From the IMG/VR virus record IMGVR_UViG_3300022924_000010, positions 1 to 41,033 of that record: a stretch of DNA of 41,033 nucleotides. One strand, given 5' to 3'. Source of the stretch: a virus. A program made the translations under genes and the position numbers. Below the pieces are notes generated by a model. That model had not been told where the DNA came from. It did no database searches and saw nothing but the letters and a program-made list of their open reading frames with translations. Of the stretch, positions 1-33,810 are shown one piece after another; the first letter of the stretch is position 1; each line of letters starts with the position of its first letter.

Positions 1-127
1 CTTCCATAGTGTAAATTTACGATTTAACTTTTGTATAATGAAATTTAATTTAAAATAATTTTAACTGTATTTCTTTTGGCTTGTAACCGATACGCTCCCA
101 TCGTTGTTTTAGCTGATCGTGCATACC
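1..127. repeat. Direct terminal repeat, left copy (assembly overlap)
   Basis: Bases 1-127 are identical to 40907-41033. The length of exactly 127 equals the largest k-mer commonly used by de Bruijn assemblers, so this most likely marks a circular contig rather than a physical terminal repeat. It holds the first codons of the XRE gene, its promoter-like element and the 3' part of the 44-residue gene at 50-184. Confidence 0.97.
12..19 (-). promoter_or_regulatory. Promoter-like -7 element upstream of the XRE gene
   Basis: On the minus strand this reads TAAATTTA, inside the 15-base sequence TAGTGTAAATTTACG at 7-21 (written on the plus strand). The same sequence with a single change recurs at 2678-2692, upstream of the YopX-like gene. 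The element is close to the Bacteroidetes -7 box TAnnTTTG but lacks the final G. It lies 5 bases before the XRE start codon (plus-strand 5-7, = 40911-40913), so the leader would be extremely short. A shared operator is possible. Confidence 0.4.
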
Positions 128-5937: not shown

Positions 5938-6211
5938 CTGTTGTGGTGTTTGCTGTTATGTTAACTTCTGCAGTAGTAGATCCCGGTAATAGTGGAGGCT
6001 TTGGCTTGGCATTAAGAACACCCCCAAAGTATAGTGCTAAAATAGTACTTGCCGATCCAGATATAAACCCAATGATCAAAGTAAGTATTTCGGTCTTATC
6101 GCCAAACCTTACGATTATATACCCGATCAATATCCAAACGGCTATGATTGAAATGTAAGCTATTCCGCTTCGTGTTCTCTGGTCGAGGTCGTGTTTTACT
6201 TCTTCTGCCAT
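5924..6211 (-). CDS. Candidate holin, two-span membrane protein (95 aa)
   Basis: Two predicted transmembrane segments (residues about 17-36, IAYISIIAVWILIGYIIVRF, and 42-65) after a charged N-terminus. The C-terminus is long, polar and Pro/Thr-rich. Size and topology fit a class II phage holin that would release the M15 endolysin. Its ATG shares an A with the stop of the HNH gene (TAATG); before the HNH insertion this was probably the endolysin-holin junction. Function is inferred from context. Confidence 0.55.
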   Translation of the reverse strand: MAEEVKHDLDQRTRSGIAYISIIAVWILIGYIIVRFGDKTEILTLIIGFISGSASTILALYFGGVLNAKPKPPLLPGSTTAEVNITANTTTDESK

Positions 6212-6780
6212 TATACTAATTGTATGTGTGGTAAATCCTTACTTTTTCTGGCATCTTTAATTTCCTTCATTACTTTCCCTATTATAATCATTTCTTCATG
6301 AGTAAAATTATCCATTCTCGCTACATTACAATCTTTACAACAAGGAACACAATTATCTACAGTATGCCCTTTTGTATTTAATATTCTATCAAAACCAGTA
6401 GGCGTATACCCACAATAAAAACAATTTGATTTAAAAACTTCTAAAATATGAACCCAAGTCATATCATTTTCAAAGCCTCTTTTCTGATCAAATTTTCTAT
6501 AAGCACTAGCTAATTGTATTGCTCTTCCTTTTGGGGTTGAACAATAAAGCTTACCATTTTTATAATGCTTTAATTTTTCCTCTTCTGTAAAAAGCCTATA
6601 TCTACTTGGTCTCGGATTATTAAAATTTCTTAATCTACTTCTATTGTTTTCACAAGACCTACATGTGTACATAAATCCAGAAGCCCTACTTTTATCTTTG
6701 TAAAAATTTATATGTAAAAGCTCTTTTTCTAACAAACACATACTACATTTTTGAAACTTTACAGTTAAATCCATAACCAT
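6211..6780 (-). CDS. HNH homing endonuclease inserted at the endolysin 3' end
   Basis: HNH-type nuclease (189 aa). A zinc-binding CSMC pair lies near residues 12-15 and CRSC near 40. The catalytic domain includes CFYCG, TGFDRI and VDNCVPCCKDCNVARMD. The pattern is the ββα-metal HNH variant with Asp (FDRI) at the first position and final Asn (CKDCN). The last nine residues, KDLPHIQLV, repeat the C-terminus of the adjacent M15 endolysin, with six of nine codons changed synonymously. This suggests that the nuclease inserted into the endolysin 3' end while a recoded copy kept the endolysin intact. Confidence 0.85.
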   Translation of the reverse strand: MVMDLTVKFQKCSMCLLEKELLHINFYKDKSRASGFMYTCRSCENNRSRLRNFNNPRPSRYRLFTEEEKLKHYKNGKLYCSTPKGRAIQLASAYRKFDQKRGFENDMTWVHILEVFKSNCFYCGYTPTGFDRILNTKGHTVDNCVPCCKDCNVARMDNFTHEEMIIIGKVMKEIKDARKSKDLPHIQLV

Positions 6781-12788: not shown

Positions 12789-13775
12789 TTATGAATTATT
12801 AAATATTCTTAAAGGAGAAACATAGCCACCAATTGGCCTTGCGTATGGGTTGTCATTTGGACCCGGCATTAAAGGGGCATATGCAAAATCTACTCCATCC
12901 AATAATGGTAGTGTATTTGATCCAGACTGTATGATGTTTACAAGTAAAGTAGATGTAGGCATTCTTAACGACTGACCATAGATTAAAATATTAGATCCGC
13001 TACCAAAATCAATATCCAATGAAACTACTGCATTTGAAGCTGATGTATAATCTGTTTTCAACCCTGTTAAGTTCTGTATAATTACCCCAACATCATAGAT
13101 CACTACCGAGTTTGTACTGTCTGTTGAACCACCTGCACCAATCGCAGTAACCTTGTATGTCCCCGCATCTGTTGATCCAAAATTAGCGATTGTTAACGTA
13201 GATGTTGTTTCTCCTGAAATAGCAACTCCATTTTTATACCACTGATAACTGGTAGTATCACTTGCGGTAGCCGATAAGGTCATTGTATATCCTTCGACTA
13301 TTGTTAATGGGGTTGTTGGTTGTAAGCTAAATACTGGAGCTGGTGGTGTAGGTATTGGTGCAATGTAAGTGCCCATCGTATAAACCGTAATGTTCATCGA
13401 TGGTAATGCGCCAGGATCATTTGGGTTTAAAAAGCCTGTAATGTTGCTATTTGCAAAGTCATAATTGGCATTTATCTGTTCGCTAGATGAAGCGTAATCG
13501 ATACGCACTGGTAATAATATCCGTCCTGCGCTTAATGAAAATGGCAGATAAGCACCGCCAAAACCATCAAGTATCAAATCGTTTTCAGTAAATTGTTGGC
13601 CTAGTCCACCGCCAACAATAGCCATTACGGTTGCAAGATCCGGAATACTTTGTGGATCTGTAAAACTTCTTGCGCTATTATACCTTATTTCATCTTCTAC
13701 ACTTATAAAACCGCCTCCGATTGCCCTTAGTACGGTAATACGTATCAGATCATATATCGCTTCACGTATTGCCAT
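12789..13775 (-). CDS. Tail protein with an immunoglobulin-like domain (328 aa)
   Basis: Residues about 142-228 form an Ig-like domain of the phage type: FSLQPTTPLTIVEGYTMTL, SYQWYKNGVAISG with the typical Trp, then LTIANFGSTDAGTYKVTA with the D-x-G-x-Y tyrosine corner. Flanking parts are beta-rich and unassigned. Ig-like domains often decorate tail and capsid proteins and aid weak attachment to host glycans. It shares 1 base with the 546-residue tail protein's stop. No signal peptide is seen. Function as a distal tail or baseplate accessory is inferred. Confidence 0.75.
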   Translation of the reverse strand: MAIREAIYDLIRITVLRAIGGGFISVEDEIRYNSARSFTDPQSIPDLATVMAIVGGGLGQQFTENDLILDGFGGAYLPFSLSAGRILLPVRIDYASSSEQINANYDFANSNITGFLNPNDPGALPSMNITVYTMGTYIAPIPTPPAPVFSLQPTTPLTIVEGYTMTLSATASDTTSYQWYKNGVAISGETTSTLTIANFGSTDAGTYKVTAIGAGGSTDSTNSVVIYDVGVIIQNLTGLKTDYTSASNAVVSLDIDFGSGSNILIYGQSLRMPTSTLLVNIIQSGSNTLPLLDGVDFAYAPLMPGPNDNPYARPIGGYVSPLRIFNNS

Positions 13776-15415
13776 TAGTCAACCAATTTAAATATGTAAA
13801 GTGAAATAACTGATTTAGGTGTAACATCGAAAAGATCACCGTCTCCCATGTTATCTGTTTTCCCTAATGTTGCTGCACTTGCGCCTTTTCTTGCCTCATA
13901 AGCTAAATCTCCACCACCTGTTCCTGCCCTTGCAACCCTTGTGTTTGAAGCAACTGTATCACCCGGACTTGCGTTAACATCAGCACTCATCGTAAACAAG
14001 GCTTCAGCAGGTAACGCCGATCTAGGTATCAGCTTTTGGTTTGTGCCAATGATAGTTCCTAAAGTAGCGTAGTTTGAAATGATATCTGCTGTTTTAATCT
14101 GTTGGAAATAAGCATTATCAGCGTCTATAGTTCCATTAGTACCAAGAATACACCACTTAGTCCATTTTGTATTAGCCTTACCTAAACCAGTTGACATATC
14201 CCAGTTCAGTAGGAAATCGCCTGGACTTGGTTCAAGCCAATTTATGATAGCTCCAGCACCTAATTCTGTTGATGCACCTCCACCACCACTAATTGGAATC
14301 GGCAAAGCGTCAAGCTGTTTCCAGATTAACCAGATAGAAACATTATCTCCTGATTGAATACCCGAAATATAAACAGTTGTAGATGTAAGAAACAGCCAAT
14401 TTAACTGTAATGAGTTGGCCGTTTGGTTAAGTACAATAGTTCCAATTTCGCTACCGTTTGGCGTTGTTCCAAAATTAAGCGTAATTGGGTTGTTTGATAT
14501 TCGATAAATCGCAATCGCTTCGAGCAAAGAATTAAAGGTAAACAAACCTGTTACATTAAAATCTGCTCCCGAATTTAAATAAGGTGTAACCACTTGATTA
14601 GGTGTATAAGTCTGATTGGGTAAATTCCCTGCTGTTACAAATCTAAGAAAATTATTGGTAACGGGTTCTATATCTATCGAGCCACCAATAAAATTATTAT
14701 CGGTATTGTTTTCTACTTCAAATTCAGAATCCTGTATCGGTTGATAAGGCACTCCATCGATTGAAATCTGATCACATTGGGTAATTATGTTTACCTTATC
14801 AAGAAACTTATTTGGAACTCCCCATTTGTAGCCAATCTTCAAAGAGAATTGACGGTATGCAATAGAATTAAGTTGGGTTAGGTTTCGTATCTGATCATTG
14901 TAAACATCCCTATCGTTCTTTGGCTTATAATCGCCAATCCATCCCTCAACACGGTAATTAAATTCAAATCCTGTATCGAAAACAACTGAATAATCATTTG
15001 TAGAATTTTTGTAGGTAAATAAAACCGTATTAGGCCATTCATCGGCTACATCAATTGCTTCTGCTTCAAATTGATCCTGTTGGATTACGAACCTACCAAC
15101 ACCTAATGTAGTGAAAGGATATGATATCTCGTAAATTCCATATGTTGGATAGTCTGGAAGCGTAATTGCACTTAAAACCCATGGAACGGTATCGGCAATT
15201 GACTGATCTAGATTGTAGATAACCAGATCATTTACCGGTGCTTCTGCAATTAATTGAAGCTTAAGTGTGTCTGACAGTTGCCATTTTTGGAAGTAGCATT
15301 GTTTAGTCTGCCAATCCTCTAACTGCGCCCCTGCAAAATTACCGTCAAATCCATTGTTAATATTTGCTGTATCAACAAAGCATAACGGCAATAGCAATGC
15401 GGGTGTCATTATCAT
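13775..15415 (-). CDS. Distal tail or baseplate protein (546 aa)
   Basis: A large beta-rich protein, with WVLSAITLPDYPTYGIYEISYPF, an acid/aromatic middle part and a Gly/Ala-rich C-terminal region with GGGGAS. The order (tape measure, 671-aa protein, this one, Ig-like protein, fibres) suggests a role in the tail tip or baseplate hub. I recognise no specific family. The first 20 residues are hydrophobic (TPALLLPLCFVDTA) but lack the basic start of a signal peptide. Confidence 0.65.
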   Translation of the reverse strand: MIMTPALLLPLCFVDTANINNGFDGNFAGAQLEDWQTKQCYFQKWQLSDTLKLQLIAEAPVNDLVIYNLDQSIADTVPWVLSAITLPDYPTYGIYEISYPFTTLGVGRFVIQQDQFEAEAIDVADEWPNTVLFTYKNSTNDYSVVFDTGFEFNYRVEGWIGDYKPKNDRDVYNDQIRNLTQLNSIAYRQFSLKIGYKWGVPNKFLDKVNIITQCDQISIDGVPYQPIQDSEFEVENNTDNNFIGGSIDIEPVTNNFLRFVTAGNLPNQTYTPNQVVTPYLNSGADFNVTGLFTFNSLLEAIAIYRISNNPITLNFGTTPNGSEIGTIVLNQTANSLQLNWLFLTSTTVYISGIQSGDNVSIWLIWKQLDALPIPISGGGGASTELGAGAIINWLEPSPGDFLLNWDMSTGLGKANTKWTKWCILGTNGTIDADNAYFQQIKTADIISNYATLGTIIGTNQKLIPRSALPAEALFTMSADVNASPGDTVASNTRVARAGTGGGDLAYEARKGASAATLGKTDNMGDGDLFDVTPKSVISLYIFKLVD

Positions 15416-15435
15416 GTACGCAAGGTAAAGAAAAT

Positions 15436-15464
15436 ATTACAAAGGATAAAAAATATATTTTGTA
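15436..15464 (+). promoter_or_regulatory. Possible promoter for the PP-loop cargo gene
   Basis: The AT-rich 79-base gap holds the box TATATTTTG (15454-15462) about 33 bases before the ATG, a relaxed match to TAnnTTTG with one extra T. No clear upstream TTG is spaced correctly. It is the only candidate for driving a plus-strand gene inside a minus-strand operon. Confidence 0.3.
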
Positions 15465-15494
15465 GATTGCAGTTCATTTAAACTCAACTTAAAA

Positions 15495-16533
15495 ATGAAA
15501 CAGAAATATTTATGCTCCACGTCTGGAGGTGAAACATCGGCCACAATGGCAAAGCTGATTAAAGACAGAAATAATCTTAAGCCCGTATTAGTTTTTAATA
15601 GCAAAGGAAAACCTCTTTACACCAAGTATGTAAACGATGAAATGGAGGTTATATTTGTTTTCGCAAACATGTCAAGAGAGGATAACCGAACCTTAAAATT
15701 TGTTTACAACTTAAAAGTTTATTGGGGAATATCTTGCGTTTGGGTAGAGGCAAACGTGCAAGAGGGACGGGTCGGTACTAAACATAAATTAGTGACTTAT
15801 CAAACGTGCAAGAGGGACGGGTCGGTACTAAACATAAATTAGTGACTTATCAAACGTGCAAGAGGGACGGGTCGGTACTAAACATAAATTAGTGACTTAT
15901 CAAACGTGCAAGAGGGACGGGTCGGTTTTCGAGGGTATAATTTCAAAATACGGGATACCTAATAAAATTTATATCCATTGTACGAGAGAGGGTAAAAAAG
16001 CACCAATTGACAGTTTTGCTAAATCTATTGGGTGGGATGATTTTATAACAATAATAGGATATCGCGCCGATGAACCAAAAAGAGTAAATTTGATCAATGC
16101 TAAAAAATCTAAGCAATGGTATCCTTTATTTGAGTGGGGAATTGTAAAAGCAGATATTAAAAACTTCTGGTCTAAACAAAAATTCAAATTAGGGTTGTTA
16201 GAATTTGAGGGAAATTGCAGATTATGCTATAAAAAATCAAAACGAAAACTTTTAACCCAAATAATTACTGATCCAAATTCTGTTGAATGGATTAAGGAAA
16301 TGGAAAATAAGTACAGATTTTTTCAGAAAAAAGGTAGAGATATTTCTAGTTTTCCAAAAGAGGGAATAATGTTTTTTAGGGAAAATGAAAGCATTAACGA
16401 TTTGATAGAAGAAAGCAAAGAGCCTTTTGATAAATGGGTTGAACCTATAAAATCTACAATGAGTTTATTTGATATTGAATTAGATGAACAAGACGGATGC
16501 GAAGAAAGTTGTGAGCCATTCCAAATAGTTTAG
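15495..16533 (+). pseudogene. PAPS reductase-like PP-loop gene split by a tandem-repeat frameshift
   Basis: Two partial frames encode one PP-loop protein of the phosphoadenosine-phosphosulfate reductase family (COG0175-like, also called DndC-like). 15495-15842 holds the SGGETSATMAKLI PP-loop and FANMSREDNRTLKFV. 15856-16533 (GTG-initiated at best) holds KHKLVTYQTCKRDGSVFEGII, KYGIPNKIYIHCTRE and RADEPKRVNL. A 50-bp unit is repeated 3.5 times at 15751-15926. Removing two units (100 bp) restores one frame of 312 residues. The gene stands alone on the plus strand with its own terminator, so it is cargo. Related proteins act on sulfur or AMP chemistry or in DNA modification; the phage role is unknown. 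Confidence 0.85.
15751..15926. repeat. Tandem repeat, 3.5 copies of a 50-bp unit
   Basis: Copies at 15751-15800, 15801-15850 and 15851-15900 are identical, followed by the first 26 bases of the unit (15901-15926). The ancestral gene probably had 1.5 copies, giving two 26-bp repeats read in different frames (ANVQEGRVG and QTCKRDGSV) around 24 bases. Any copy number from 2.5 upward hits an in-frame TAG in the second unit. Confidence 0.95.
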
Positions 16534-16554
16534 TTGAGTTTACTATTCTGGATT

Positions 16555-16590
16555 AAAGCCGATACATATTAATTTATGGTCGGCTTTTTT
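16555..16590 (+). terminator. Rho-independent terminator of the PP-loop cargo gene
   Basis: Stem AAAGCCGA (16555-16562) / TCGGCTTT (16580-16587), 17-base loop, followed by T-run. It lies 22 bases after the PP-loop gene stop and converges with the end of the 671-residue tail gene at 16589. Confidence 0.88.
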
Positions 16591-18604
16591 ACGGCAATAA
16601 ACTAAAATCAGTTGCCAACAATTTCAAAGTCTGTTCTGTATTTCCCGCCAAATCAACTGGTAATTCCAAAATATAACCGCTTGCAATCGTTCCATTGTAT
16701 TCAAATGTTACGTAACCGAATGGATTGCTATCTATCAACTGCATTGCGTTTCGTGGTAGTTTGCAGGTAATATTGAAAATGTAAGGTTGAAAATATTTAC
16801 CAGTTAAATCAGAAACACGTATCGGTTTATCCTCATCTACAACCTGACCATTATTGACAACTACTATATTTGCGTTCTTTTCTGCGCTTCCAAATTCAAT
16901 GAAGCGGGGATTTAACCTGTCCAATATCGAACGGAAAAAGCCTGAATGGTTTAATAGATTATGCTTAGGAGAAAGTAAAAGGTTGTATGCAGACAACGGA
17001 AAAGTTAACCCCGTAACGCCTGATAACTGAATTCCCAATATTGGCGTAAAATTACCATCTCCATTAATCGGGTTGCAATCGATCATAAACGTATCGTTAT
17101 CACTTTTATTATCTGAAGTAGCTGTTTTACTGATATTGAATTGAACCCTTAGCTGCTCGATGCCGTATTGATCGGCACGAACCGGACTAACCATATTGAT
17201 CTCTTTCTGTAAGGCCGTAATTGGTAAACCCCAAACCTGTCCGCTATTGTATTCCTCACGGCCATCATAAGCATCCGTATTACCATCATCATACCCAATC
17301 TTCAATGAATTGCCCAAAAGTTCTTCAGCATTATCTTGAGAAAAGTCTTTTATACTTCCAACATCCATAATCTGGATATTTCGGAAAAAAGAATAGGTTT
17401 CTTCTAATTTGAATTTACCGCTATCAGTACCCAATCCAACATCGTTTATCGCGTAGAAACATTGGTATAAATCCTTCAATGAAATCTTAATCTTTGCATC
17501 AGCTATTTCACGGACTGCAGAACCAGATGTAAAAATTAGGTCTTTACGGATTGTCTTTAAAAATACGCTATCGAATACGGTTGATGGGCTAACCCTTGTC
17601 AATGCACGCCTCATCAGATCAAATGATCGTATACCTTTACAGTTGGACGGATCGCTAACGCTTGCGTAGCTAACCCTAACTTCTCCCTCTGAAACACTTA
17701 GATAGGGAATACTGGGCGATTGATCTGACCTTGAATAGATATAAAGTCCTTCGCCCTGTTTCATCGCGTATGTAAAATCGAATGATACATCAAATATTAA
17801 TGGCGTTGTAGTTTGGCTTGTACCTACAAATAATTGTTTAACAGGATTATATCCTACGCCTAAAGTTGAGCAAATTAAAAGTTCGCAAATACGGCTAAAG
17901 CCCACAAGTCTTGGGTATATAAATCCCTGCATTCTGCCTCTAATCCTTACTGTTTGTCCCCCCACCCTATCACATCTAACGAAATAATCACCTCCAAAGT
18001 TATCTGTATCAGCAGCATTTCTCTGAGCTGTATTTACAGCAGAAAGAAAACCAGATCCAAAACCGTTTGTAGTTAAGTCTGTACCAATTACGAAACGCTT
18101 TGCACTGTTGAGTGAAGTTGTGTCTACATATTTTGTTATCCAGATACTTTCCTCTTTAAACTGAACGCCTGGCAATACGATATTTACAACATCAGGTCCA
18201 ACCAGATCAAATTCATATACAATACCCTCTTTAGCCTTTATATCTTTGCCTATGCCAGTTTCCAAAAGCATGATGTTTACTGCTTTGCCAACCGGATTAT
18301 ATTTACTAAAGTCAAGGTCTGATCTGAATATGGTTTCGTAGTCCCATAATGATTTACGCTGTTCAACCTCTAACCTTACGCCTGCTTCGATGCCATATTT
18401 ATCAAATGCAATCTTTAGTATCTGCGCTCCATCCTTAACGAACTGTAACGGCAAACTAAGCGATCTGATAATCCCGAAATAGGCCATATCCCTTTGGAAC
18501 TTTCCTATAGTTTCCTTATCCCATCCAACTGGAGCAAATACAAGTTCTGTCCGTACATTGTCGAGTGTTAGGTAATACCGAAACTTATTGCCCATTAAAT
18601 TCAT
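16589..18604 (-). CDS. Tail protein downstream of the tape measure (671 aa)
   Basis: A large protein with no recognisable motif, predicted mixed alpha/beta with little low-complexity sequence. It follows the tape measure gene and shares one base with its stop, a position usually taken by distal tail or baseplate hub proteins in siphophages. Fragments such as YYLTLDNVRTELVFAPVGWD, IAYDKYGIEAGVR-like text and a C-terminal beta domain are the only landmarks. Assignment is by gene order. Confidence 0.65.
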   Translation of the reverse strand: MNLMGNKFRYYLTLDNVRTELVFAPVGWDKETIGKFQRDMAYFGIIRSLSLPLQFVKDGAQILKIAFDKYGIEAGVRLEVEQRKSLWDYETIFRSDLDFSKYNPVGKAVNIMLLETGIGKDIKAKEGIVYEFDLVGPDVVNIVLPGVQFKEESIWITKYVDTTSLNSAKRFVIGTDLTTNGFGSGFLSAVNTAQRNAADTDNFGGDYFVRCDRVGGQTVRIRGRMQGFIYPRLVGFSRICELLICSTLGVGYNPVKQLFVGTSQTTTPLIFDVSFDFTYAMKQGEGLYIYSRSDQSPSIPYLSVSEGEVRVSYASVSDPSNCKGIRSFDLMRRALTRVSPSTVFDSVFLKTIRKDLIFTSGSAVREIADAKIKISLKDLYQCFYAINDVGLGTDSGKFKLEETYSFFRNIQIMDVGSIKDFSQDNAEELLGNSLKIGYDDGNTDAYDGREEYNSGQVWGLPITALQKEINMVSPVRADQYGIEQLRVQFNISKTATSDNKSDNDTFMIDCNPINGDGNFTPILGIQLSGVTGLTFPLSAYNLLLSPKHNLLNHSGFFRSILDRLNPRFIEFGSAEKNANIVVVNNGQVVDEDKPIRVSDLTGKYFQPYIFNITCKLPRNAMQLIDSNPFGYVTFEYNGTIASGYILELPVDLAGNTEQTLKLLATDFSLLP

Positions 18605-21603
18605 TAGTTCCTTTTAAATAGTCTGTCTGTATAATTGTTTATTTTACTCATTCTTGCGGTTGTAGACCTAAATCCTCTTTCGGTAACTATTGTTGACTGC
18701 ATTTTAATTTTTTGAACAGCCTTTACTTGTTGTTTTGAGCTATTTCTAATATCATCACGTAAACCTTGCAAATCCCAACTGTTACCAGCAACATCGTGCC
18801 TATCTGGTTTAGCCAATAATCGTTTTGTTTCTGGAGCAGATATAAACTTTGTACCCTTCCTAACAAATCCAATCTCTGGATTATCTTTTGTTAATGATGT
18901 TCTGCCATCAGGATCAATCCTTAATTCCTGTCCGTGACCATATTCCGCATAACCATCTTTAGCCATCGTACCGCCTTTCGCAAATTTAGGTATTGGTTGA
19001 GCTAAAACGGTAGCTGCCTGAATTGCACCCAAAGCAATGATTCCTGGGATTACAAAAGCCCCCAATACTCCTGTTTGAGCCAATGCCTTACTGATAGCAA
19101 CGGCAGTATTAATTGCAATCTGGCCCAATGCGAATACTTTATCCGCAACCGCTTGTTTGCGTTTCTGTTCACGGATACGGGCATCAATAGCCAATTGAGC
19201 CTGTTCGCCCTGTGCCTGAATAATAGCGGTCTGATCCGCTTTTTCTTTTTCGGACAACATGCTTTCCGCAACATTCTCTAGCTGTAAGTCAGTTGCAGAT
19301 TGCCTAGCTTCCTTTTCTTTTTCGAGGTTGGCAATATTTGTATCGAAAATCTGTGACGTTAATCCACGTGTAAAATCGAATACTCCCAAAGCAACCTCTT
19401 TAATGGCTTCTGCATTCTGTTTTTCGGCTTCTAAACGTTTTTTATTGCTCGCATCGATGCCCTGTAGTTCAGTATCTTTTGCCTTTAAAATCAGTGCTGA
19501 CAAATCAGCTTGCTCTTTAGTAACATCTGCACCTTGCGCCTTTCTTACCTCAATAAGCTTTTGAGCCTGTTTAATCTGCTCATCTAATTCTTTAAGATTG
19601 TATTTACGGGTAATTTCAAGTCTGGCTAAATCTAATGCTTCCTGTGCCTTTTCAGAGTAATCGCCTTTTTTCTGATAGTTATTGATTAAAGCTGTTATCT
19701 CTTCATTACGCTGTTTTTCGATAACATTTAAAGTCTGTTGACCCTGAATTAAACGGATTCGCTCAGATTCACTAGCTTCGAAAAGAAGTATTTTTATAGT
19801 TTCTTCGCTTGATTTTTTGTTGGCCGTATCTTTTTTATTATTGTAATCGGCATCTACCTTTAGTTTCTCATCAGCAGTTAATTTTTTGCCCTTAATTTCC
19901 TTTTGTTGCTCTAGTCTTGCAATCTCATTTGATACATTGGTAAAGTTTCTAAGTGCATCTAGCCTTGTTTGTTGGCTGAAATTCTCATTTTTAAACTGAT
20001 CCTCGTAAACCTTTTGGATATCCTTATTGGCATCAATCTGAATTTGTATCAGAGCAGCAGCATCTTTACGCGCCTGAATTGCGGGATCAACACCTTTTTT
20101 CTTTTTTTCTTCCTTAACATCCACCAACCCATTAAACCCATACTTTTTAGCTATATCAGCAGCCTGTTGTTGGAATTTACGGGCAATAGCCAACTGCTTT
20201 TCTTGCGACTGTTGACCATCTTTAATTCTCTGCTCATTTTCACGCTTTAAATCTTTGGTTAAAATCTTTCTTACAGCTTCGCCCTCTTTATCTCCTTTTA
20301 TTACAAAGTCGGTTTGTTGCCTAATTAAACGCTGTTCATCTTCCTGCGCCTGTTGCGCTGCTTTTACAGCTTCCTGTGCTGCGTTACTTAGTGATAATTG
20401 AGCAGCAGCCTTTAGTAACGTAAATTGTATATAGGCATCTGCATTCTTATTCAGTGCGATTTCGGCTGCATCCAATGATTTAACTTTGCCGGTTGTTTGT
20501 CCTATGGTTTCGTTATACTGCTTAAGCACAACTTCTTTATCTATAAATCCTTTTCTAGCTAGGTCAATATTTATGCGTAGTTCGTTTACGTTTTTAACGG
20601 CATCGGCATAAGCACCGCCCTCTAATGATTTATTTAGATTTTCTTGCGTTGCCTGTGCCTGATTTGTTTTTTTGCTGAATAGATCTAAACCTTCTACTAA
20701 TTTGGCAATACCTTCGTAAGCGACACCAAACAAACCAGCAATACCAATTCCAGGCAAGATCATTGCAAGCGTTCTTAAACCACTAAAAGCCCTTGTAAAG
20801 GCATTTCCGTAGTTACCAACATTTCTTTGTGATTTTCCTAAATTCTTTTCAAGTGTTAAAACCTGATCATTTAACTGAGGAATTGTTTTACTTAACCTTT
20901 GACCGAATGGACTTGCTCTTTCTTCTACCGTTAAAAGTGAATAAGTTTTTTGCAACCTAGCTAAAGCCAATTGACGCTGTTCCAAACTTCCTTTAACCGC
21001 ATTTCCCTCTTTGGCTTGGGCAACTAGGTTTAATCGATCAATCTTAGCTAACTGATTGGCTTTTTCCTGCTCTAGGTTTGATAGCTTTTTTGCCTTTGTC
21101 GTTTGTTCGGTAACAACATTAGTTCTGCCTCTTGCGGTAGCTTCATTTGCCTGTGCCCCTGTAATCTGTGTGCTGTTGGCTAATTCTTGGGCTGATATTT
21201 CTGCTTCTTTCTGCGCTCTAGCTACCTCAACCGATTCAATCTGTTTGATACGGGCAATCTTGGCATTGTCTTTAGCAATCTGTTGCGCTTCAATAGCATC
21301 TTTTTTTGCCTGTCTTGCAGTTTCAGCATTGGCATCCTTTACCCTTTGTGCTTCTATTTTTTCCTCAATCTGTTGGGTACGCAAAAGGGACTGCTTCAAT
21401 TTTTCTTGGGCAATAGCAGCAGCATCGGCACTTTTGGAAAAATCTCCCATGCCTTTTGACTTGGCCATTACATCATTTAAGGCTTTATAACCTACGATGT
21501 TATCCTGCAAAACCAAATAAGCCTTTTCAAGCTCTTCACGTGTTTTGATTACGCTATCGATCCCGACTTTGGAAACAATCTCTTTAACGTCAACTCCTGC
21601 CAT
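18604..21603 (-). CDS. Tape measure protein (999 aa)
   Basis: The longest gene. Residues about 60-250 and 430-770 are strongly helical and rich in Ala, Gln, Lys, Glu (long coiled coil). A hydrophobic pair lies at about 270-300 (LRTLAMILPGIGIAGLFGVAYEGI) and another at about 855-900 (VLGAFVIPGIIALGAI). This is the composition and layout of siphophage tape measure proteins, which fix tail length and enter the cell with DNA. At roughly 1.5 Å per residue it would correspond to a tail of about 150 nm, an estimate only. The ATG shares a base with the preceding chaperone-like gene's stop. Confidence 0.88.
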   Translation of the reverse strand: MAGVDVKEIVSKVGIDSVIKTREELEKAYLVLQDNIVGYKALNDVMAKSKGMGDFSKSADAAAIAQEKLKQSLLRTQQIEEKIEAQRVKDANAETARQAKKDAIEAQQIAKDNAKIARIKQIESVEVARAQKEAEISAQELANSTQITGAQANEATARGRTNVVTEQTTKAKKLSNLEQEKANQLAKIDRLNLVAQAKEGNAVKGSLEQRQLALARLQKTYSLLTVEERASPFGQRLSKTIPQLNDQVLTLEKNLGKSQRNVGNYGNAFTRAFSGLRTLAMILPGIGIAGLFGVAYEGIAKLVEGLDLFSKKTNQAQATQENLNKSLEGGAYADAVKNVNELRINIDLARKGFIDKEVVLKQYNETIGQTTGKVKSLDAAEIALNKNADAYIQFTLLKAAAQLSLSNAAQEAVKAAQQAQEDEQRLIRQQTDFVIKGDKEGEAVRKILTKDLKRENEQRIKDGQQSQEKQLAIARKFQQQAADIAKKYGFNGLVDVKEEKKKKGVDPAIQARKDAAALIQIQIDANKDIQKVYEDQFKNENFSQQTRLDALRNFTNVSNEIARLEQQKEIKGKKLTADEKLKVDADYNNKKDTANKKSSEETIKILLFEASESERIRLIQGQQTLNVIEKQRNEEITALINNYQKKGDYSEKAQEALDLARLEITRKYNLKELDEQIKQAQKLIEVRKAQGADVTKEQADLSALILKAKDTELQGIDASNKKRLEAEKQNAEAIKEVALGVFDFTRGLTSQIFDTNIANLEKEKEARQSATDLQLENVAESMLSEKEKADQTAIIQAQGEQAQLAIDARIREQKRKQAVADKVFALGQIAINTAVAISKALAQTGVLGAFVIPGIIALGAIQAATVLAQPIPKFAKGGTMAKDGYAEYGHGQELRIDPDGRTSLTKDNPEIGFVRKGTKFISAPETKRLLAKPDRHDVAGNSWDLQGLRDDIRNSSKQQVKAVQKIKMQSTIVTERGFRSTTARMSKINNYTDRLFKRN

Positions 21604-25012: not shown

Positions 25013-25272
25013 TAAAGTTGGATATTTTTCTACAAACCGAAATAGACGGTGATATTTACGTTAAATCAGACTTGTTGGATTTAATGAGATTACAAAAGCA
25101 ATTGTTAATTGAAGAAGATTTGTTATGTACAATTGAAGATTGTGCTAACATTTGGTTAGGTTATTCAAATGATTTACAGGCATCATGGTTATTCTTTCCC
25201 AAAGATGATAAAGATATTATACCGATGATTAAAGGCAATAGTTATTTCGTTTCATTTTCTGACTATCTATAA
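25009..25272 (+). CDS. Hypothetical cargo protein (87 aa)
   Basis: Last gene of the cassette. It holds DIFLQTEIDGDIYVKSDLLDL, then CTIEDCANIWLGYSND and WLFFPKDDKDIIPMIKG. No domain is recognised. It stops 5 bases before a strong terminator. Confidence 0.55.
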   Translation: MIKLDIFLQTEIDGDIYVKSDLLDLMRLQKQLLIEEDLLCTIEDCANIWLGYSNDLQASWLFFPKDDKDIIPMIKGNSYFVSFSDYL

Positions 25273-25277
25273 ACAAT

Positions 25278-25303
25278 AAATCCCGCTATTTCTAACGGGA
25301 TTT
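25278..25303. terminator. Bidirectional terminator between the cargo cassette and tail genes
   Basis: Perfect stem AAATCCCG (25278-25285) / CGGGATTT (25296-25303) with a 10-base loop; it is T-rich on both sides. It ends the plus-strand cassette (stop 25272) and the minus-strand gene 25309-25482. Confidence 0.85.
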
Positions 25304-25308
25304 AAATT

Positions 25309-25482
25309 CTATTTCTTCTTTTTTGAATCTACCTTAATCGGTGGTGAAATATTATCGAACTCTTTTGACAGATTTATGTTTTCAAAACCAGGCACTTTAG
25401 AATAATGCTCAACAAAATTTTCCTTTCCGACTTCTACAGCCCAAACCTTGTTAAAGCTGTTCTTTCCGATTACTACGCTCAT
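25309..25482 (-). CDS. Small tail-region protein (57 aa)
   Basis: A 57-residue ORF starting SVVIGKNSFNKVWAVEVGKENFVEHYSKVPGF-like and ending in a Lys-rich tail (KVDSKKKK). Its ATG shares a base with the stop of the tail tube candidate (TAATG), so it is coupled. Such small proteins following the major tail protein are common in Bacteroidetes phages; no function is assigned. Confidence 0.6.
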   Translation of the reverse strand: MSVVIGKNSFNKVWAVEVGKENFVEHYSKVPGFENINLSKEFDNISPPIKVDSKKKK

Positions 25483-26399
25483 TAGGCAACGTAGATATCT
25501 TGGATTTCAAAACCAACAACTCCAGCAGCATCAAGTAATGTTACCGTGCTACCCCCAAATGTGCCTGCTCCAGATGACGCCAAAACAACGGTAAACGACT
25601 TCGTTGATGGTACTGCAGTAACCGAACTGATAACAATTGAAGTACCGCTACGGATAAACTCATACAAAGCAGGATCAGCCAACTGTGTTGAATACTGATC
25701 GTAAAGATTGATGCCTCCGCAACCTGTTGTTGCTCTAAATCCAAAAGTAGTTGTAGCACGTGGCGCAACCAATGATGGGATGATATTGTTTAATCCCGAT
25801 AACTCTTGCAATTCTCCCAAGTCCAATGGAATTGAGCCCCCATTTTCGTTGAAATAGTTTGGCAAGAAATTCACACGGTAAGCATAAACAGTAATCGTTG
25901 CATCAGTTGCAATTTTAAGCTTATCAGTGAAGATGTAGTTTGCCGGAATACCTTTTAACGATGTACCAACTTTACGACCGAACAAACGACCATCTGCGTC
26001 AACAACAAAGAAGTAGTCGTTGTCGCTTTTGTTGAACGCTCTTAGCTTATCATTAAGGCATTTACCGCCTTTGATAAACTGTAAGGTCCAATCGTACATT
26101 CCCTCGTTAACTGGAACGTTAAACCCTGCGCCCAATGTTTGATAAGTCGTATCTGTTGAGTTATCAGTAACCAAAACCTGTTGAGGGTAAGGAAAGATAC
26201 GATCAGCAAAAAGGTCAGCTTTGGTTGCTGCATCAAGTTTTGCCATTACCGTTGCGCTATCTACCATATTAGCCTCTGTAAGCTCGAATGATTTTGGCAC
26301 ACGGATAATAAACTGTGGCAATTTTGGATCAATGGCGCAATCTCCAAAACCTGTGTTTGCCCCATTATTATCGCAAATTGTTGTATTTAAAATGCTCAT
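25482..26399 (-). CDS. Major tail protein candidate (305 aa)
   Basis: A 305-residue beta-rich protein between the head-tail connector genes and the tape measure region. Fragments include FADRIFPYPQQVL, GMYDWTLQFIKGGK, NDYFFVVDADGRLFGRKVG and an Ala/Ser/Thr-rich C-terminal domain (about 60 residues) with Ig-like or lectin-like composition. Gene order (after 172 and 199-residue connector genes, before the chaperone and tape measure) and lack of signal peptide support a tail tube protein. Could instead be a different structural tail protein. Confidence 0.6.
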   Translation of the reverse strand: MSILNTTICDNNGANTGFGDCAIDPKLPQFIIRVPKSFELTEANMVDSATVMAKLDAATKADLFADRIFPYPQQVLVTDNSTDTTYQTLGAGFNVPVNEGMYDWTLQFIKGGKCLNDKLRAFNKSDNDYFFVVDADGRLFGRKVGTSLKGIPANYIFTDKLKIATDATITVYAYRVNFLPNYFNENGGSIPLDLGELQELSGLNNIIPSLVAPRATTTFGFRATTGCGGINLYDQYSTQLADPALYEFIRSGTSIVISSVTAVPSTKSFTVVLASSGAGTFGGSTVTLLDAAGVVGFEIQDIYVA

Positions 26400-26411
26400 G
26401 TTAATAATTTT

Positions 26412-27011
26412 TTAAACTACCACAACACTAGGCGGGCAGTATGATGAATTAATTTTTAAATTTCTGAAAGTTATCTCTATTGCATCAAGTTTATCATTGA
26501 AAACCGCACCTTCTTTACCGTAAACGCCTTCACGTCCCCAAAAATAGTTCCGTTTAGCATCGTGCCTTAAATTTTCAGGGTTACCAACACCGACAAAAGT
26601 ATTCTTTGTTAGCGAAATCTGTCTAAGCAAACTTTGATAAATCGGTGTCAATATCGGCTTGAAATTGAGCTCATCCCTTTGGTAAGCCTTGAAATTACTA
26701 TCGGTACTGTTACAGATAGCAATCCTCAATTCCGGAATGTTACTGTAGATACCTGGAGCAGTTCCAAATTCTTCTTTTACATCAAGAAACAGACAGATTA
26801 AAGGGTATTTGTTAACGTTGGTATCGTTCAAGCTCATTTGGTTCAATGTTTCGATTATCTCGTAACCTGTACCGTACTGATAGTGAACACCCGTTAATTC
26901 ATAGCCTTTCTCCGCATTCAAAGCCTGTAAAGTAGGTAGCATTTCTGCGCTTACCTTGGCAACGATCTCTGCAAATATGTCCTGAATGTATATCGGATTT
27001 GGTGAGGTCAT
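26412..27011 (-). CDS. Head-tail connector or tail terminator protein (199 aa)
   Basis: Predicted alpha/beta, with NPIYIQDIFAEIVAKVSAEMLPTLQALNAEKGYELTG at the N-terminus and a C-terminal ITFRNLKINSSYCPP. The start at 27011 is preferred because it lies 2 bases after the upstream stop; the longer ORF start at 27104 is inside the neighbour. By position it would cap the tail tube (tail terminator) or complete the neck. Confidence 0.55.
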   Translation of the reverse strand: MTSPNPIYIQDIFAEIVAKVSAEMLPTLQALNAEKGYELTGVHYQYGTGYEIIETLNQMSLNDTNVNKYPLICLFLDVKEEFGTAPGIYSNIPELRIAICNSTDSNFKAYQRDELNFKPILTPIYQSLLRQISLTKNTFVGVGNPENLRHDAKRNYFWGREGVYGKEGAVFNDKLDAIEITFRNLKINSSYCPPSVVVV

Positions 27012-27013
27012 AA

Positions 27014-27532
27014 CTAAAAATCTAAAGTATTCTTGAACTGATAGATTTCTGAAATATGCCAACCGCATCCGAACCACCAATGACGCCAATAAACCCTGTT
27101 CCAATCTGGATAGTCTGTTGTTGAAAGGTCAAACAGCCTAGCCATTCCAACCATTTCGTTCCAACTTCTAACCATTTTTGCCATATTGTTTACTGGAGTT
27201 GCATTGTCTGTCTTTCCCTTTACTTCGCCTATTCCTGCCGTAGATGTTGCCTGATTAAGCATGTAGTAATAATATACGTAATCAATTATCATCGGCTTTA
27301 GGTCTGTTTCGTCACGAAGGGCAACCCATTTCGCTTTTAGCGGATCGATATCAGGCAAAGCCAAACCAGCAATAAACTCTGCATACAATGTAGCACCCAG
27401 CAATTCCAAAAGAAATTTCTTCTCGTACTTATTGATGAAATCTTGGACAGTAGTCGATACTCCGCCAACATTTGCAGGAACTTGTGCAATCGTATTCTCT
27501 CCCTTGAAATCACTAGGTATTACAATAGACAT
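27014..27532 (-). CDS. Head-tail adaptor-like protein (172 aa)
   Basis: Mostly helical, with STTVQDFINKYEKKFLLELLGATLYAEF, then an Asp/Pro loop and YVYYYYMLNQATSTAGIG. This resembles the Bacteroidetes phage adaptor family sometimes labelled DUF6712. The C-terminal 40 residues are Trp-rich. It lies between the signal-peptide protein and the tail-terminator candidate, the usual neck position. Confidence 0.65.
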   Translation of the reverse strand: MSIVIPSDFKGENTIAQVPANVGGVSTTVQDFINKYEKKFLLELLGATLYAEFIAGLALPDIDPLKAKWVALRDETDLKPMIIDYVYYYYMLNQATSTAGIGEVKGKTDNATPVNNMAKMVRSWNEMVGMARLFDLSTTDYPDWNRVYWRHWWFGCGWHISEIYQFKNTLDF

Positions 27533-27543
27533 AACTTTTTATT

Positions 27544-27945
27544 TTATTGACGGTATAATAAGTACTTATTGTGGGTACTATTCTGCGTTCCGGTAGTAGT
27601 TGTAATGACGCGATAATTGTAACCCTGATTACTTGTAAAGTTTAGCCAATTTTCAGCAGTTGCATCTGTAATAGTGTAACTGTTCAATGTGTGCCAAACT
27701 TCACCAGACAATCCAGTAAGTTTGCTCTGAAGTACAATTGTTCCTGCTACAGTGCCACTATTTTTAGTGATCTGGTAATGGAAAGTAATTGCGCTTCTGC
27801 TTTTTGGTATTGTTACGTTAATCGTATCGGCAGCAGCATTCGCCATTACCTTGTTAACCGTTCCGATCTGGCCCTGAAAATCCTGAGCTTTTGTAAAGGC
27901 AGTCATACCGAGAACCAATGCAAGAATTAAAACTAGCCTTTTCAT
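27544..27945 (-). CDS. Signal-peptide beta-sandwich protein in the head module (133 aa)
   Basis: Starts with a Sec-type signal peptide (KRLVLILALVLGMTAFTKAQ) followed by a beta-sandwich-like domain rich in Thr, Asn, Ser (residues about 25-133) with RSAITFHYQITK and GTIVLQSKLTG. It lies between the 80-residue head gene and the connector, where decoration or neck proteins are expected. Whether the peptide is used is unknown. The domain looks like phage decoration or Ig-like adhesin modules. Confidence 0.6.
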   Translation of the reverse strand: MKRLVLILALVLGMTAFTKAQDFQGQIGTVNKVMANAAADTINVTIPKSRSAITFHYQITKNSGTVAGTIVLQSKLTGLSGEVWHTLNSYTITDATAENWLNFTSNQGYNYRVITTTTGTQNSTHNKYLLYRQ

Positions 27946-28187
27946 TATTCAGTAACCCCCGCAACTTCTTTAGCTTTTTTCATTTCAGCTTTTTCATCCA
28001 AATCAGTAACCTTTACATGTTTCGGATAGTTTTTAGCTAATTTATCAGCACCGCTAAAGTGCATGATTGTTTTTTCCCCTTTTTTGAACTTCTTGAAGTC
28101 CTGCAAGAACTCAACGTTTCTTGCATCCTCAATTCTACCCTTTGGCAAAACTGAGTCTTGGCTTAACGCCTGTTTGATATCTGACAT
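27945..28187 (-). CDS. Small charged protein after the capsid gene (80 aa)
   Basis: A Lys/Glu-rich, helical 80-residue protein (SVLPKGRIEDARNVEFLQDFKKF, KAEMKKAKEVAG). It lies 25 bases after the major capsid gene in the head operon and shares one base with the signal-peptide gene downstream. Small charged proteins here are often head completion or capsid-associated; function is not assigned. Confidence 0.6.
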   Translation of the reverse strand: MSDIKQALSQDSVLPKGRIEDARNVEFLQDFKKFKKGEKTIMHFSGADKLAKNYPKHVKVTDLDEKAEMKKAKEVAGVTE

Positions 28188-28212
28188 CTTTATTTAATTT
28201 TAAGATAAATGA

Positions 28213-29604
28213 TTAAATAACTGGAACTTCGATCAAGGTCTCAATGTTAGTCCATGTATCATAGATAACAGATCCTCTTGTATCGCTTGGGAAATAGGTA
28301 AGATAACGTCTCCAACCTCTGTAAGAAGTTTTATCTTCACGGAAATCTTCACCGTTCAAACCAGTTTCAATACCAGCGTTACCATATCTGAACATTTTAA
28401 ATCCAGTATCGGCAGCCACCAATAAAAGGTGTGTAGAAGGAATATCATCAGCATCAACACCGATAACATGAACACCTGCAATCCAAAGTTCAGCGTTATT
28501 TGAAACGTAAACCAAAGAGTTATTCATGTATCTTTCATCTGTTGATTTAAGCGAAATAATCGCATACCAAACATCCCACGCAACAAACGCCATTCCAGCG
28601 ATATACTTGCTTGTAGTGACCATTGAAGCAGCAGCAGCGATAATATCATCAATATATGTTGCGGCAATTACTTTTTCATCAAAAGCAGGTGTAACAACGT
28701 ACTGCGAAGCGTTTGTAATGATACCATAAGGCTCTAATGCGTTTACAGCAGGATTACCACGTAATAAACCAGTATTAGCTACTTCATCCAATTGCTCTTT
28801 GAAATCTGTTTTGATCCAATTATCAAATGAAGGGATGTCCTGAAGCAAACAATCTTCGATGGTACCGAAAATAGCTAATTTCTTCGCATCAGCACGAACG
28901 GCTTTAATTCTGAATGAACGCTTAGGTTTAGCCTGTCCGCTTTCAATCCATGCCGCACCACCCGGATCGCCACTTGTTGGATTTGTATCGCCAATTTCAA
29001 CCTTTTCTAAATAGATAAGGTATGGAACGTTGATAGTTCTGATAGGGAAGTAATCCAACATGATATTGGTTTTTCTCCTTGCAGCCATTAATCCTGGAAG
29101 AAGCATGTAGCCAGAAGCCATAACAGCAGTATCAGCACCCTCGCCTGTTACAAAAGTTTGTGGAATACCAAATGTTTCAGCCGCTTTTACCTCTTCGATT
29201 TCCAAAAAGTTGTTTTCCCTTTTGTTTTTCAAAGATTTTTCGGTGAAATTTTTAACATCCTCCATTTTGTACATCGGCCTAGCGCCGATTACTTTTGGAT
29301 TCGCTTTATCTGCTTCATCAGCTGCTTTAACCTGTAGCTCTACCAATTGGTTGAACAATGCTTCATTCTTTTCGTTGATCGCTTTTAACTTAGCATCAAC
29401 ATCAGATGCCTTCATTGTAGAAAGCTCTGATTTTAGGGATTCAATATCAGCTTTTAATGCCGTTACCTCTTCCTGTTTTGCTGCTTCGCCCAACTTCTCA
29501 ACAATAACATCTACGTTATCGGATAGGGTTTTGAAAGCATCTTCTTCGTTCGAACCACCGCCACCATTAGCATCAGCAGTACGATAAATAAATCTTTTTA
29601 CCAT
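28213..29604 (-). CDS. Major capsid protein, HK97-like, with N-terminal helical scaffold (463 aa)
   Basis: An HK97-type capsid protein. Residues about 20-105 are a charged coiled coil (NEEDAFKTLSDN through VELQVKAADEADK), a delta-domain-like scaffold to be removed by the neighbouring protease. The shell domain follows, with TFGIPQTFVTGEGADTAVMASG, AWIESGQAKP, SFRIKAVRADAKKLAIFGTIEDC, EQLDEVANTGLLRGN and C-terminal SDTRGSVIYDTWTNIETL. Gene order (portal, protease, capsid) is classical. The start overlaps the protease stop by 7 bases. Confidence 0.9.
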   Translation of the reverse strand: MVKRFIYRTADANGGGGSNEEDAFKTLSDNVDVIVEKLGEAAKQEEVTALKADIESLKSELSTMKASDVDAKLKAINEKNEALFNQLVELQVKAADEADKANPKVIGARPMYKMEDVKNFTEKSLKNKRENNFLEIEEVKAAETFGIPQTFVTGEGADTAVMASGYMLLPGLMAARRKTNIMLDYFPIRTINVPYLIYLEKVEIGDTNPTSGDPGGAAWIESGQAKPKRSFRIKAVRADAKKLAIFGTIEDCLLQDIPSFDNWIKTDFKEQLDEVANTGLLRGNPAVNALEPYGIITNASQYVVTPAFDEKVIAATYIDDIIAAAASMVTTSKYIAGMAFVAWDVWYAIISLKSTDERYMNNSLVYVSNNAELWIAGVHVIGVDADDIPSTHLLLVAADTGFKMFRYGNAGIETGLNGEDFREDKTSYRGWRRYLTYFPSDTRGSVIYDTWTNIETLIEVPVI

Positions 29605-30449
29605 TTTAAGTTTTTTAACTTGTTAGACATTTCTTTTAATTGTTTGCTATGAGTGTTTTTCAACGGCTCAACTTTATCATGAGTGTCTGCTGACGGCTCA
29701 ATATTTTTAATTATGTTTCCTGTAATTGGATTACTACCAAAAGGAACTAAACTGCTTTCTCTTGAATTTTTAGCTTCTTTGATAATGAAGAAATAAGGAA
29801 TATATTCAAAATCAGATGCATTTGCGATTTCATTTTTGTAGGCATCATAATTATCTTTTGCTTTTTTATCTTCTGGAGCATTACTGTCAAGTGCAAAATC
29901 AATTGATATGTACATCATCCTTACGCTTGCCTGTATTGCATCTCCGCTTTCTAGCCATTCTTTGGCCTCTTTGCTCATTACCTTGTCTTTTCTGAACTTA
30001 TACACCAAAACCTGTGTGCTTCCAGCGTATGGCATTCCCAAAGAAGCGAATGTAACTTTAGCTACGAACATTTCGATATGCTCTTTTCTTACGATAGTAT
30101 CTCTGATTGTTAGGCTATGGGTATCAACCAAATAGTTTTTGCCCTGTTGATCTGAAACTGATTTGTTCCAGATACCATTGATATGCAAATCATCATGGCT
30201 ATCTAATATTCTTGTGGTATTTACGGCAATATAATAATAGTCTTTATCGACAGAAACGGCTTTATCAGCTACTTCCATCCTTATTTTATTTAAGGTCTTG
30301 CAAGAAACTGCCAAACCCTTATCAACAGACTTTTGCTCGATAGATTTTTTGAAATCAATGATCTGGTCTAAGTTTTCCTTAATATAGGAAATCATCAGCT
30401 CTTTTGAAGCAAACTCTTTCTGTTCCCCTAAAATAGATTTTAAAATCAT
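29598..30449 (-). CDS. Prohead protease, HK97-like (283 aa)
   Basis: Probable capsid maturation protease of the U35/HK97 type. The N-terminal helical segment is followed by VNTTRILDSHDDLHINGIW, the typical NxxxxxxxSHxDxxxxG block, then LVDTHSL with the candidate catalytic His. A Ser (in IQASVRMMYI, around residue 188) is the candidate nucleophile. It precedes and overlaps the capsid gene and follows the portal, as expected. The C-terminal 80 residues are charged and poorly conserved and might include a scaffold-like extension. Catalytic residues are assigned by analogy. Confidence 0.8.
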   Translation of the reverse strand: MILKSILGEQKEFASKELMISYIKENLDQIIDFKKSIEQKSVDKGLAVSCKTLNKIRMEVADKAVSVDKDYYYIAVNTTRILDSHDDLHINGIWNKSVSDQQGKNYLVDTHSLTIRDTIVRKEHIEMFVAKVTFASLGMPYAGSTQVLVYKFRKDKVMSKEAKEWLESGDAIQASVRMMYISIDFALDSNAPEDKKAKDNYDAYKNEIANASDFEYIPYFFIIKEAKNSRESSLVPFGSNPITGNIIKNIEPSADTHDKVEPLKNTHSKQLKEMSNKLKNLKW

Positions 30450-30571
30450 TTTTTAATTTCTTTGCCTAAGTCCTCTAATTTTTTTTCGATAGCTTCTTTA
30501 GCTTTCTTGTCTTTTGTCGATACCTTGGCCTGTTTAAGCTGTTGCTCCGACTGTTTTTGTTGGTTGCACAT
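30446..30571 (-). CDS. Small charged coiled-coil ORF between portal and protease (41 aa)
   Basis: A 41-codon ORF, Gln/Lys/Glu-rich, overlapping the 3' end of the portal gene by 38 bases and coupled to the protease start by ATGA. The sequence (KVSTKDKKAKEAIEKKLEDLGKEI) looks like a single helix or coiled coil. It may be translated by re-initiation; alternatively it is only a coupling ORF. Confidence 0.45.
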   Translation of the reverse strand: MCNQQKQSEQQLKQAKVSTKDKKAKEAIEKKLEDLGKEIKK

Positions 30572-31778: not shown

Positions 31779-31828
31779 TGGGGTTAAAGATAACAATATA
31801 TTTTTGATTGTAACAAATTTGATAATAT

Positions 31829-33576: not shown

Positions 33577-33598
33577 TGTTACCTCTCTGTTTTAAACC

Positions 33599-33606
33599 CA
33601 AATCTA
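33599..33606 (-). promoter_or_regulatory. Candidate late promoter -7 box
   Basis: TAGATTTG on the minus strand fits TAnnTTTG, 22 bases before the terminase small-subunit ATG (33576). The upstream -33 region has no clear TTG. It may begin the packaging, head and tail transcript. Confidence 0.45.
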
Positions 33607-33625
33607 CGAATTATTTTTTAAAAAC

Positions 33626-33808: not shown

Positions 33809-33810
33809 TA

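What the first reader, a model, noticed from the sequence alone, without database searches (positions are those of the whole stretch)
15495..16533. PP-loop (PAPS reductase-like) cargo gene switched off by a 50-bp tandem repeat
The gene lies alone on the plus strand inside the minus-strand tail module and is split by 3.5 identical 50-bp copies. Deleting exactly two copies restores a 312-residue frame. 50 is not a multiple of three, so copy-number changes by slippage or recombination between the 26-bp repeats would switch the gene on and off. Only the 1.5-copy form gives full length, because the second unit carries an in-frame stop. This could be phase variation of a cargo enzyme in a phage.
Basis: partly seen in the sequence, partly recalled or inferred. 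Interest (0 to 1): 0.8.

Follow-up and report, generated by a model that had tools for sequence, protein, structure and literature searches.

The report
Phage cargo gene broken by repeat
A bacterial virus carries a spare enzyme gene that is interrupted by a perfect 50-base repeat whose copy number decides whether the protein can be made, so the gene may be a reversible on/off switch or may simply have been broken recently.

Summary
Window 15751-15926 is a perfect 50-bp x 3.52 tandem array inside a PAPS-reductase-like (PHROG_424, PP-loop) gene. Both halves match the family, and only a 1.5-copy array keeps one frame. 79 of 80 viral relatives read straight through the site with 1.5-copy spacing.
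New here: (1) The record ends overlap by exactly 127 bp, so it is a circular k=127 assembly. 176 bp is the longest such array that k=127 can hold, so 3.5 copies is a floor. (2) The 26-bp arm is used twice in different reading frames, and both readings fit the family (11.5 and 11.1 bits). No native word from 79 relatives does so when swapped between sites. Relatives share at most 11 of 26 bases between the sites. This suggests a functional 1.5-copy allele with 26-bp direct repeats existed. (3) Two sister phages lack the gene at this spot, so it is cargo.
Best reading: an OFF allele made by out-of-frame tandem expansion, mechanistically reversible, like pneumococcal capsule-gene duplications. 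Whether it is a selected switch or a step to loss is undecided: no ON molecule was seen, and two near-invariant residues outside the arms are changed.

The parts
15495..15842 (+). 5' part of the PAPS-reductase-like (PP-loop) gene; ATG to the TAG met in the second repeat unit; 115 aa, carries the SGGxTS PP-loop motif (SGGETS)
   Evidence: ORF; PHROG_424 E 7.9e-10 over residues 2-88
15751..15926 (+). 50-bp tandem array, 3.52 perfect copies
   Evidence: TRF; 0 of 100 shuffles for the arm
15751..15776 (+). first 26-bp arm (S1), read NVQEGRVG in the upstream frame
   Evidence: profile fit 11.5
15901..15926 (+). last 26-bp arm (S2), identical DNA read QTCKRDGSV in the other frame
   Evidence: profile fit 11.1
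15840..15845 (+). tandem in-frame stops TAG TGA that end the upstream frame in unit 2
15856..16533 (+). 3' part of the same gene (frame open from 15838), 225 aa; GNCxxC and C-terminal SCEPF motifs present
   Evidence: ORF; PHROG_424 E 1.4e-26; aligns to relatives from residue 5 on
16557..16590 (.). inverted repeat AAAGCCGA/TCGGCTTT followed by T, read by eye as a possible terminator shared by the cargo gene and the next tail gene
   Evidence: sequence; loop too long for the scan, which did not list it
15416..16588 (.). cargo spot between two minus-strand virion genes; different content in sister phages L090 and L091
   Evidence: blastn of window against L090/L091; sequences; ORFs

Best explanation
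The window carries an OFF allele of a PAPS-reductase-like cargo gene. In the ancestral ON form the gene held one and a half 50-bp units, that is a 26-bp direct repeat 50 bp apart whose two copies are translated in different frames. Slippage or recombination between the arms during phage replication added whole 50-bp units (at least two more). Each unit shifts the frame by two, and any complete second unit brings in-frame stops, so the product is a 115-residue fragment. Loss of the added units by the same route would restore the gene, so the lesion is reversible in mechanism. Shown: the array, the broken frame, the family identity, the normal length, the absence from sister phages and the dual-frame fit of the arms. 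Inferred: the ON allele, the route of expansion, and reversal. Whether reversibility is used (phase variation) is left open.
For: Array and frames. Family match of both halves. 79 of 80 relatives run through uninterrupted (the exception L059 has a point stop far downstream). In the four relatives printed, alignment length over the array equals the 1.5-copy reading, with a one-residue gap in some. The arm fits the family in both frames: S1 11.5 bits against random window DNA -12.1 (sd 5.5), S2 11.1 against -17.4 (sd 5.6), fraction reaching it 5e-5 each of 20,000. Matched null: native S2 words of 79 relatives read in the S1 frame, maximum 1.4; native S1 words in the S2 frame, maximum -0.1. Relatives' two sites share 7.2 of 26 on average, 11 at most, n=79, so identity arose in this lineage. 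The rest of the gene shows no other frame break.
Against: No ON molecule and no copy-number variant seen; no reads available. Four departures from 40 near-invariant columns (T to M in FANT, A to C inside S2, L to G in CTREL, I to Y) against a mean of 0.92; only 4 of 79 relatives have four or more. The I to Y change is shared with L010 and L011, but T to M and L to G are not, and an insertion of about 18 residues follows the PP-loop. These could mean that the protein was already decaying. S2's fit (11.1) lies below the 5th percentile of relatives (13.5).
Confidence: 0.62

Rival explanations
1. One-way loss: the cargo gene was broken recently by a tandem expansion and is on its way out. The repeat is only the first visible lesion and never serves as a switch.
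For: Cargo absent in both sister phages, so the gene is dispensable on this scale. Two near-invariant residues outside the arms are changed without precedent in L010/L011, and there is an unusual insertion. A relative, L059, is broken by a point stop. Lambda ninC is scored nonessential (PMC10695390, table passages).
Against: Beyond the array the frame is otherwise intact over the whole gene. The dual-frame fit of the arms argues that a 1.5-copy allele was under selection for function. Only 1 of 80 relatives has a broken frame otherwise.
Confidence: 0.27
2. Assembly artefact: the true genome has another structure and the 3.5-copy array was made by the assembler.
For: Array length 176 = 127 + 49 is the longest array of this period that a k=127 graph can hold without a loop, and the record is a k=127 assembly by its exact 127-bp end overlap. 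So the copy number is a floor and not a measurement.
Against: In a k=127 graph each (k+1)-mer must be seen in reads, and a 128-mer wholly inside the array needs more than 2.5 copies in some molecule (inference). A 1.5-copy form has no repeated 127-mer and would assemble directly. All four arms are identical.
Confidence: 0.06
3. Recoding: the gene is expressed as it stands. A +1 shift at the AAT TAG in unit 2 would join the two frames and give a full-length protein with one extra 33-residue copy in a loop, or a ribosome could hop between identical codons two units apart.
For: The frames abut within a few bases (upstream stop at 15840, downstream frame open from 15838). Relatives L002, L023 and L056 carry inserts of roughly 30-45 residues at this very loop. 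RNA downstream of the stop folds slightly better than shuffles in one of three stretches tested (z -2.06; the others -0.57 and -0.20).
Against: No known shift-site consensus was recognised (TAG, not TGA C; recalled). The other two folds are ordinary. Relatives need no recoding. A hop would have to skip the nearest identical landing site.
Confidence: 0.03
4. The array is an in-protein repeat with its own function (as in repeat proteins).
For: Some relatives have long in-frame repeats nearby (L011, L016).
Against: Those have periods that are multiples of three. Here the unit is 50 bp and stops follow in two of three frames.
Confidence: 0.01

Closest known systems
Reversible tandem duplications inside pneumococcal capsule genes (cap3A, cap8E, tts; Waite et al. 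2001 and 2003)
   Same: Tandem duplication inside an open frame switches a gene off; the duplication is described as spontaneous and reversible (passages of PMC4243769 and PMC2995930; the original papers were not read).
   Different: Those are bacterial capsule genes with duplications of various segments (recalled). Here it is a phage cargo gene with one perfect multi-copy 50-bp array, and the ON form itself appears to hold 26-bp direct repeats read in two frames. Switching has not been observed.
Simple-sequence-repeat phase variation (Neisseria, Campylobacter and similar)
   Same: Unit length not a multiple of three, copy number sets the frame.
   Different: Unit 50 bp and not 1 to about 10 bp (recalled definition). 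Only one copy number is ON, since a complete second unit carries stops.
Phage PAPS-reductase-like / NinC proteins (PHROG_424)
   Same: Both halves match the profile. tblastn of the downstream half finds 273 phage records, among them Tenacibaculum phage PTm1 (39%), chi-like Salmonella phages and lambda.
   Different: Frame broken by the array; 39% or less identity to the best hits among named phages; 54% to the nearest viral contig (L010).

Membership tests
Phage PAPS-reductase-like family (PHROG_424) | profile match over the protein | tested here: met
   C-terminal part 1.4e-26, N-terminal part 7.9e-10. Pfam-A: 0 families for either part.
Phage PAPS-reductase-like family (PHROG_424) | SGGxTS PP-loop, GNCxxC and C-terminal SCE motifs | tested here: met
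   SGGETS, GNCRLC, SCEPF in the two ORFs. The importance of the motifs is inferred from conservation.
Phage PAPS-reductase-like family (PHROG_424) | uninterrupted frame | tested here: not met
   Stops at 15840 and 15843. 79 of 80 relatives uninterrupted.
Phage PAPS-reductase-like family (PHROG_424) | enzyme activity on PAPS or another adenylated substrate | not testable with these tools
   No assay. The nearest solved chains match only the PP-loop part (3 sequences, best 2.7e-6).
Phase-variable contingency locus (repeat-mediated) | repeat inside the coding frame with unit not a multiple of three | tested here: met
Phase-variable contingency locus (repeat-mediated) | an ON copy-number state that gives a family-like protein | tested here: inconclusive
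   Met only by frame arithmetic and family alignment; the ON molecule itself was not seen.
Phase-variable contingency locus (repeat-mediated) | copy number varies within a population | not testable with these tools
   No reads. Exact arm search in viral contigs found 0, with near-identical records possibly withheld.
Phase-variable contingency locus (repeat-mediated) | switching is heritable, frequent and selected | not testable with these tools
   needs culture or time series
Simple-sequence-repeat phase variation | short unit (1 to about 10 bp; recalled) | tested here: not met
   period 50

The most novel reading that the evidence does not exclude
A built-in genetic switch in a phage cargo gene. 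The ON gene keeps a 26-bp word twice, 50 bp apart, translated in two different frames, and both translations are functional. Repeated cycles of expansion (OFF) and contraction (ON) homogenise the two arms, while selection on the ON protein keeps the word legible in both frames. The dual-frame word would then be a readable sequence signature of past switching that could be searched for in other genomes.
Probability: 0.25. Interest if true: 0.8.

Novelty: new variant of a known kind. Interest (0 to 1): 0.5.

Why it matters
If copy number varies, this would be repeat-based on/off switching of a cargo enzyme in a phage of probable Bacteroidota hosts (host inferred by me from relatives). It would give a simple way to ask when such an enzyme pays. 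The dual-frame repeat is a testable sequence signature of repeated switching that does not depend on catching both states. If it does not vary, it is still a clear snapshot of how phage cargo is lost. The k=127 point is a general caution: short-read assemblies report a floor for such arrays, so switches of this kind are easily miscounted or missed.

Tried and rejected
Exact arm in viral contigs: 0. Single-protein scans of viral contigs and genome contigs: 1 and 48 pattern matches, no relative; an alignment query then gave 591 relatives among 600 listed candidates, 80 kept. Nucleotide search of 13800-21600 in named phages: no match. Rfam: 0 matches in window, L090 and L091. Promoter scan: 1 site against 4.9 expected, no value; Bacteroidota promoters are not covered by it. 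Direction of arm conversion: S1 codons are rarer (0.0004) than S2 codons (0.0096), which suggests S2 to S1, but S2 fits the family less well than nearly all relatives, which suggests the reverse; left open. The 'own gene outside array' codon row used a wrong frame for the second half and was not used. Script failed partway. L130's six 'stops inside' looked like a second broken copy; one search shows an intact PP-loop ORF on the other strand, so this was rejected. L128's single TAA comes at the end of an open frame of 301 aa. Recoding was tested only by folding. Structure prediction was not run.

Literature: library searches on phage phase variation and tandem repeats gave no paper describing repeat-switched phage cargo (listings only; one search returned 0). 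This is not a claim that none exists. Assembler k-list searches did not yield the k values; PMC11265017 passages say JGI uses metaSPAdes without giving k. k=127 rests on the 127-bp end overlap.

Full report
What was checked. The window is a virus record of 41,033 bp. Its first 127 bases equal its last 127 exactly, which is what a circular contig from a k=127 de Bruijn graph looks like. The genome is therefore probably complete, about 40.9 kb. The array at 15751-15926 is real in the assembly: period 50, 3.52 copies, no mismatch. The gene starts at 15495, and its first frame ends at TAG 15840. A second frame, open from 15838, runs to the stop at 16531-16533. Both halves match PHROG_424, phosphoadenosine phosphosulfate reductase of phages. 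Pfam-A gives nothing.

Frame logic. A unit of 50 bases moves the frame by two. The upstream frame is open in unit 1, meets stops at +39 and +42 of a complete unit 2, and would also meet stops in unit 3. The downstream part needs the last half unit to be read at the offset that occurs only if it is the second unit.

What the normal gene looks like. An alignment search returned 80 viral relatives (the best 80 of 591). In 79 the frame is uninterrupted over the site and to the end of the match. The exception, L059, is open over the site and has a single in-frame TAA far downstream. Over the repeat region the relatives printed have the length of the 1.5-copy reading, within one residue. A few relatives (L002, L023, L056) have inserts of tens of residues in exactly this loop, so the place tolerates length change when the frame is kept. 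The nearest relative, L010, is 54% identical over the alignment.

The arms. The 1.5-copy form must already contain a 26-bp perfect direct repeat, because tandem addition of whole units copies what is there. The two arms are read in different frames: NVQEGRVG and QTCKRDGSV. Scored on a profile of 79 relatives that does not include the window, the first arm gets 11.5 bits and the second 11.1. Random window DNA gets about -12 and -17, and 5e-5 of 20,000 draws reach the observed score in each case. As a closer null I read each relative's own second-site word in the first-site frame and the reverse (n=79): the best were 1.4 and -0.1. DNA drawn synonymously for the second peptide reaches the first-arm score in 0.00025 of draws; for the first peptide read as the second, none of 20,000 did. 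In relatives the two sites share 7.2 of 26 bases on average and 11 at most. So the identity is new in this lineage, and the word satisfies two frames at once. I take this as evidence that a 1.5-copy allele existed and worked. Caveats: the first site is a variable loop, so its alignment is less certain, and pre-existing chance similarity of the two sites cannot be excluded. The arm is 61.5% G+C in a 35.8% genome, and its codons are rare for this phage in the first frame (0.0004) and somewhat rare in the second (0.0096).

Base rate. In 126 sources (1.04 Mb) the exact direct repeats of 20 nt or more at 24-300 nt spacing, apart from the window's, have spacings divisible by three, with one exception: L029 at spacing 160, starting just after the gene's frame ends. 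TRF on 125 loci gives 3 arrays of period 20 or more with 95% or more identity. An out-of-frame, multi-copy, perfect array in a conserved gene is therefore very unusual in this material.

Copy number. At k=126 the array repeats a k-mer; at k=127 it does not. So 176 bp is the longest such array that the assembly could show without a loop, and the true number may be higher. By inference, a 1.5-copy form would have assembled directly, and a minor 1.5-copy form would have been removed as a bubble. The assembled state is then the commoner one in the sample. I could not look at reads.

Cargo. The flanking genes are virion genes: 16589-18604 matches a virion structural PHROG, and 18604-21603 a tape measure. 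The gene on the other side, 13775-15415, has no PHROG match. Two sister phages have both neighbours: L090, 91-94% identical in DNA, and L091, 77-80% next to the spot. Neither has this gene between them. L090 has two small ORFs on the strand opposite to the tail genes (6055-6228 and 6221-6421). L091 has about 400 bp without a sizeable ORF. PHROG_424 matches in 4 of 21 records tested from the two flank and terminase searches, and in none of the records behind L090-L094. The spot is a place where cargo comes and goes.

Is it a switch? For: the array is the only frame break in an otherwise open gene, the mechanism is reversible in principle, and the arms look as if shaped by function in both frames. 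Against: no other copy-number state was found, and four of 40 near-invariant columns are changed, where relatives average 0.92 and 4 of 79 have as many. One of the four (I to Y) is shared with the two nearest relatives, and one lies inside the second arm. T to M in the FANT motif and L to G in CTREL remain unexplained. There is also an insertion of about 18 residues after the PP-loop. These may mean decay, or an enzyme of altered specificity.

Closest precedent. Reversible duplications inside pneumococcal capsule genes switch them off and on; I saw this in passages of two later papers that cite Waite et al., not in the originals. The present case differs in being in a phage, in having one perfect array, and in the dual-frame arm. 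Function of the protein is unknown; lambda's relative NinC is listed as nonessential (PMC10695390 table passages).

Verdict. Observation confirmed. Interpretation partly supported: an OFF allele by out-of-frame tandem expansion is well supported; phase variation is possible and testable, not shown.

Noticed in passing
window 1-127 and 40907-41033: Exact 127-bp direct terminal repeat: the record is a circular k=127 contig, so the phage genome is probably complete at about 40.9 kb.
   Followed up: yes
L059 (about position 3397): A PAPS-reductase-like relative with a single in-frame TAA about 70 residues before its end, otherwise intact: a second broken allele in the family, by point change, or a recoded stop.
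   Followed up: partly
L094 against window 25271-33926: 99.6% identical over 8.7 kb but 86-95% on both sides: a recent recombination tract between sister phages covering the head and terminase genes.
   Followed up: no
L091 8290-8350: The corresponding cargo spot in L091 holds a piece that looks like a tRNA T-arm and acceptor stem by eye; neither ARAGORN nor Rfam calls it.
   Followed up: partly
L011 1923-2250 and L016 1-370: Long nine-base-type in-frame repeats near or upstream of PAPS-reductase-like genes in two relatives.
   Followed up: no
window 15580-15660: An insertion of about 18 residues after the PP-loop helix whose sequence (PVLVFNSKGK) resembles the following strand (VIFVFANMSRE); possibly an older duplication.
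   Followed up: no
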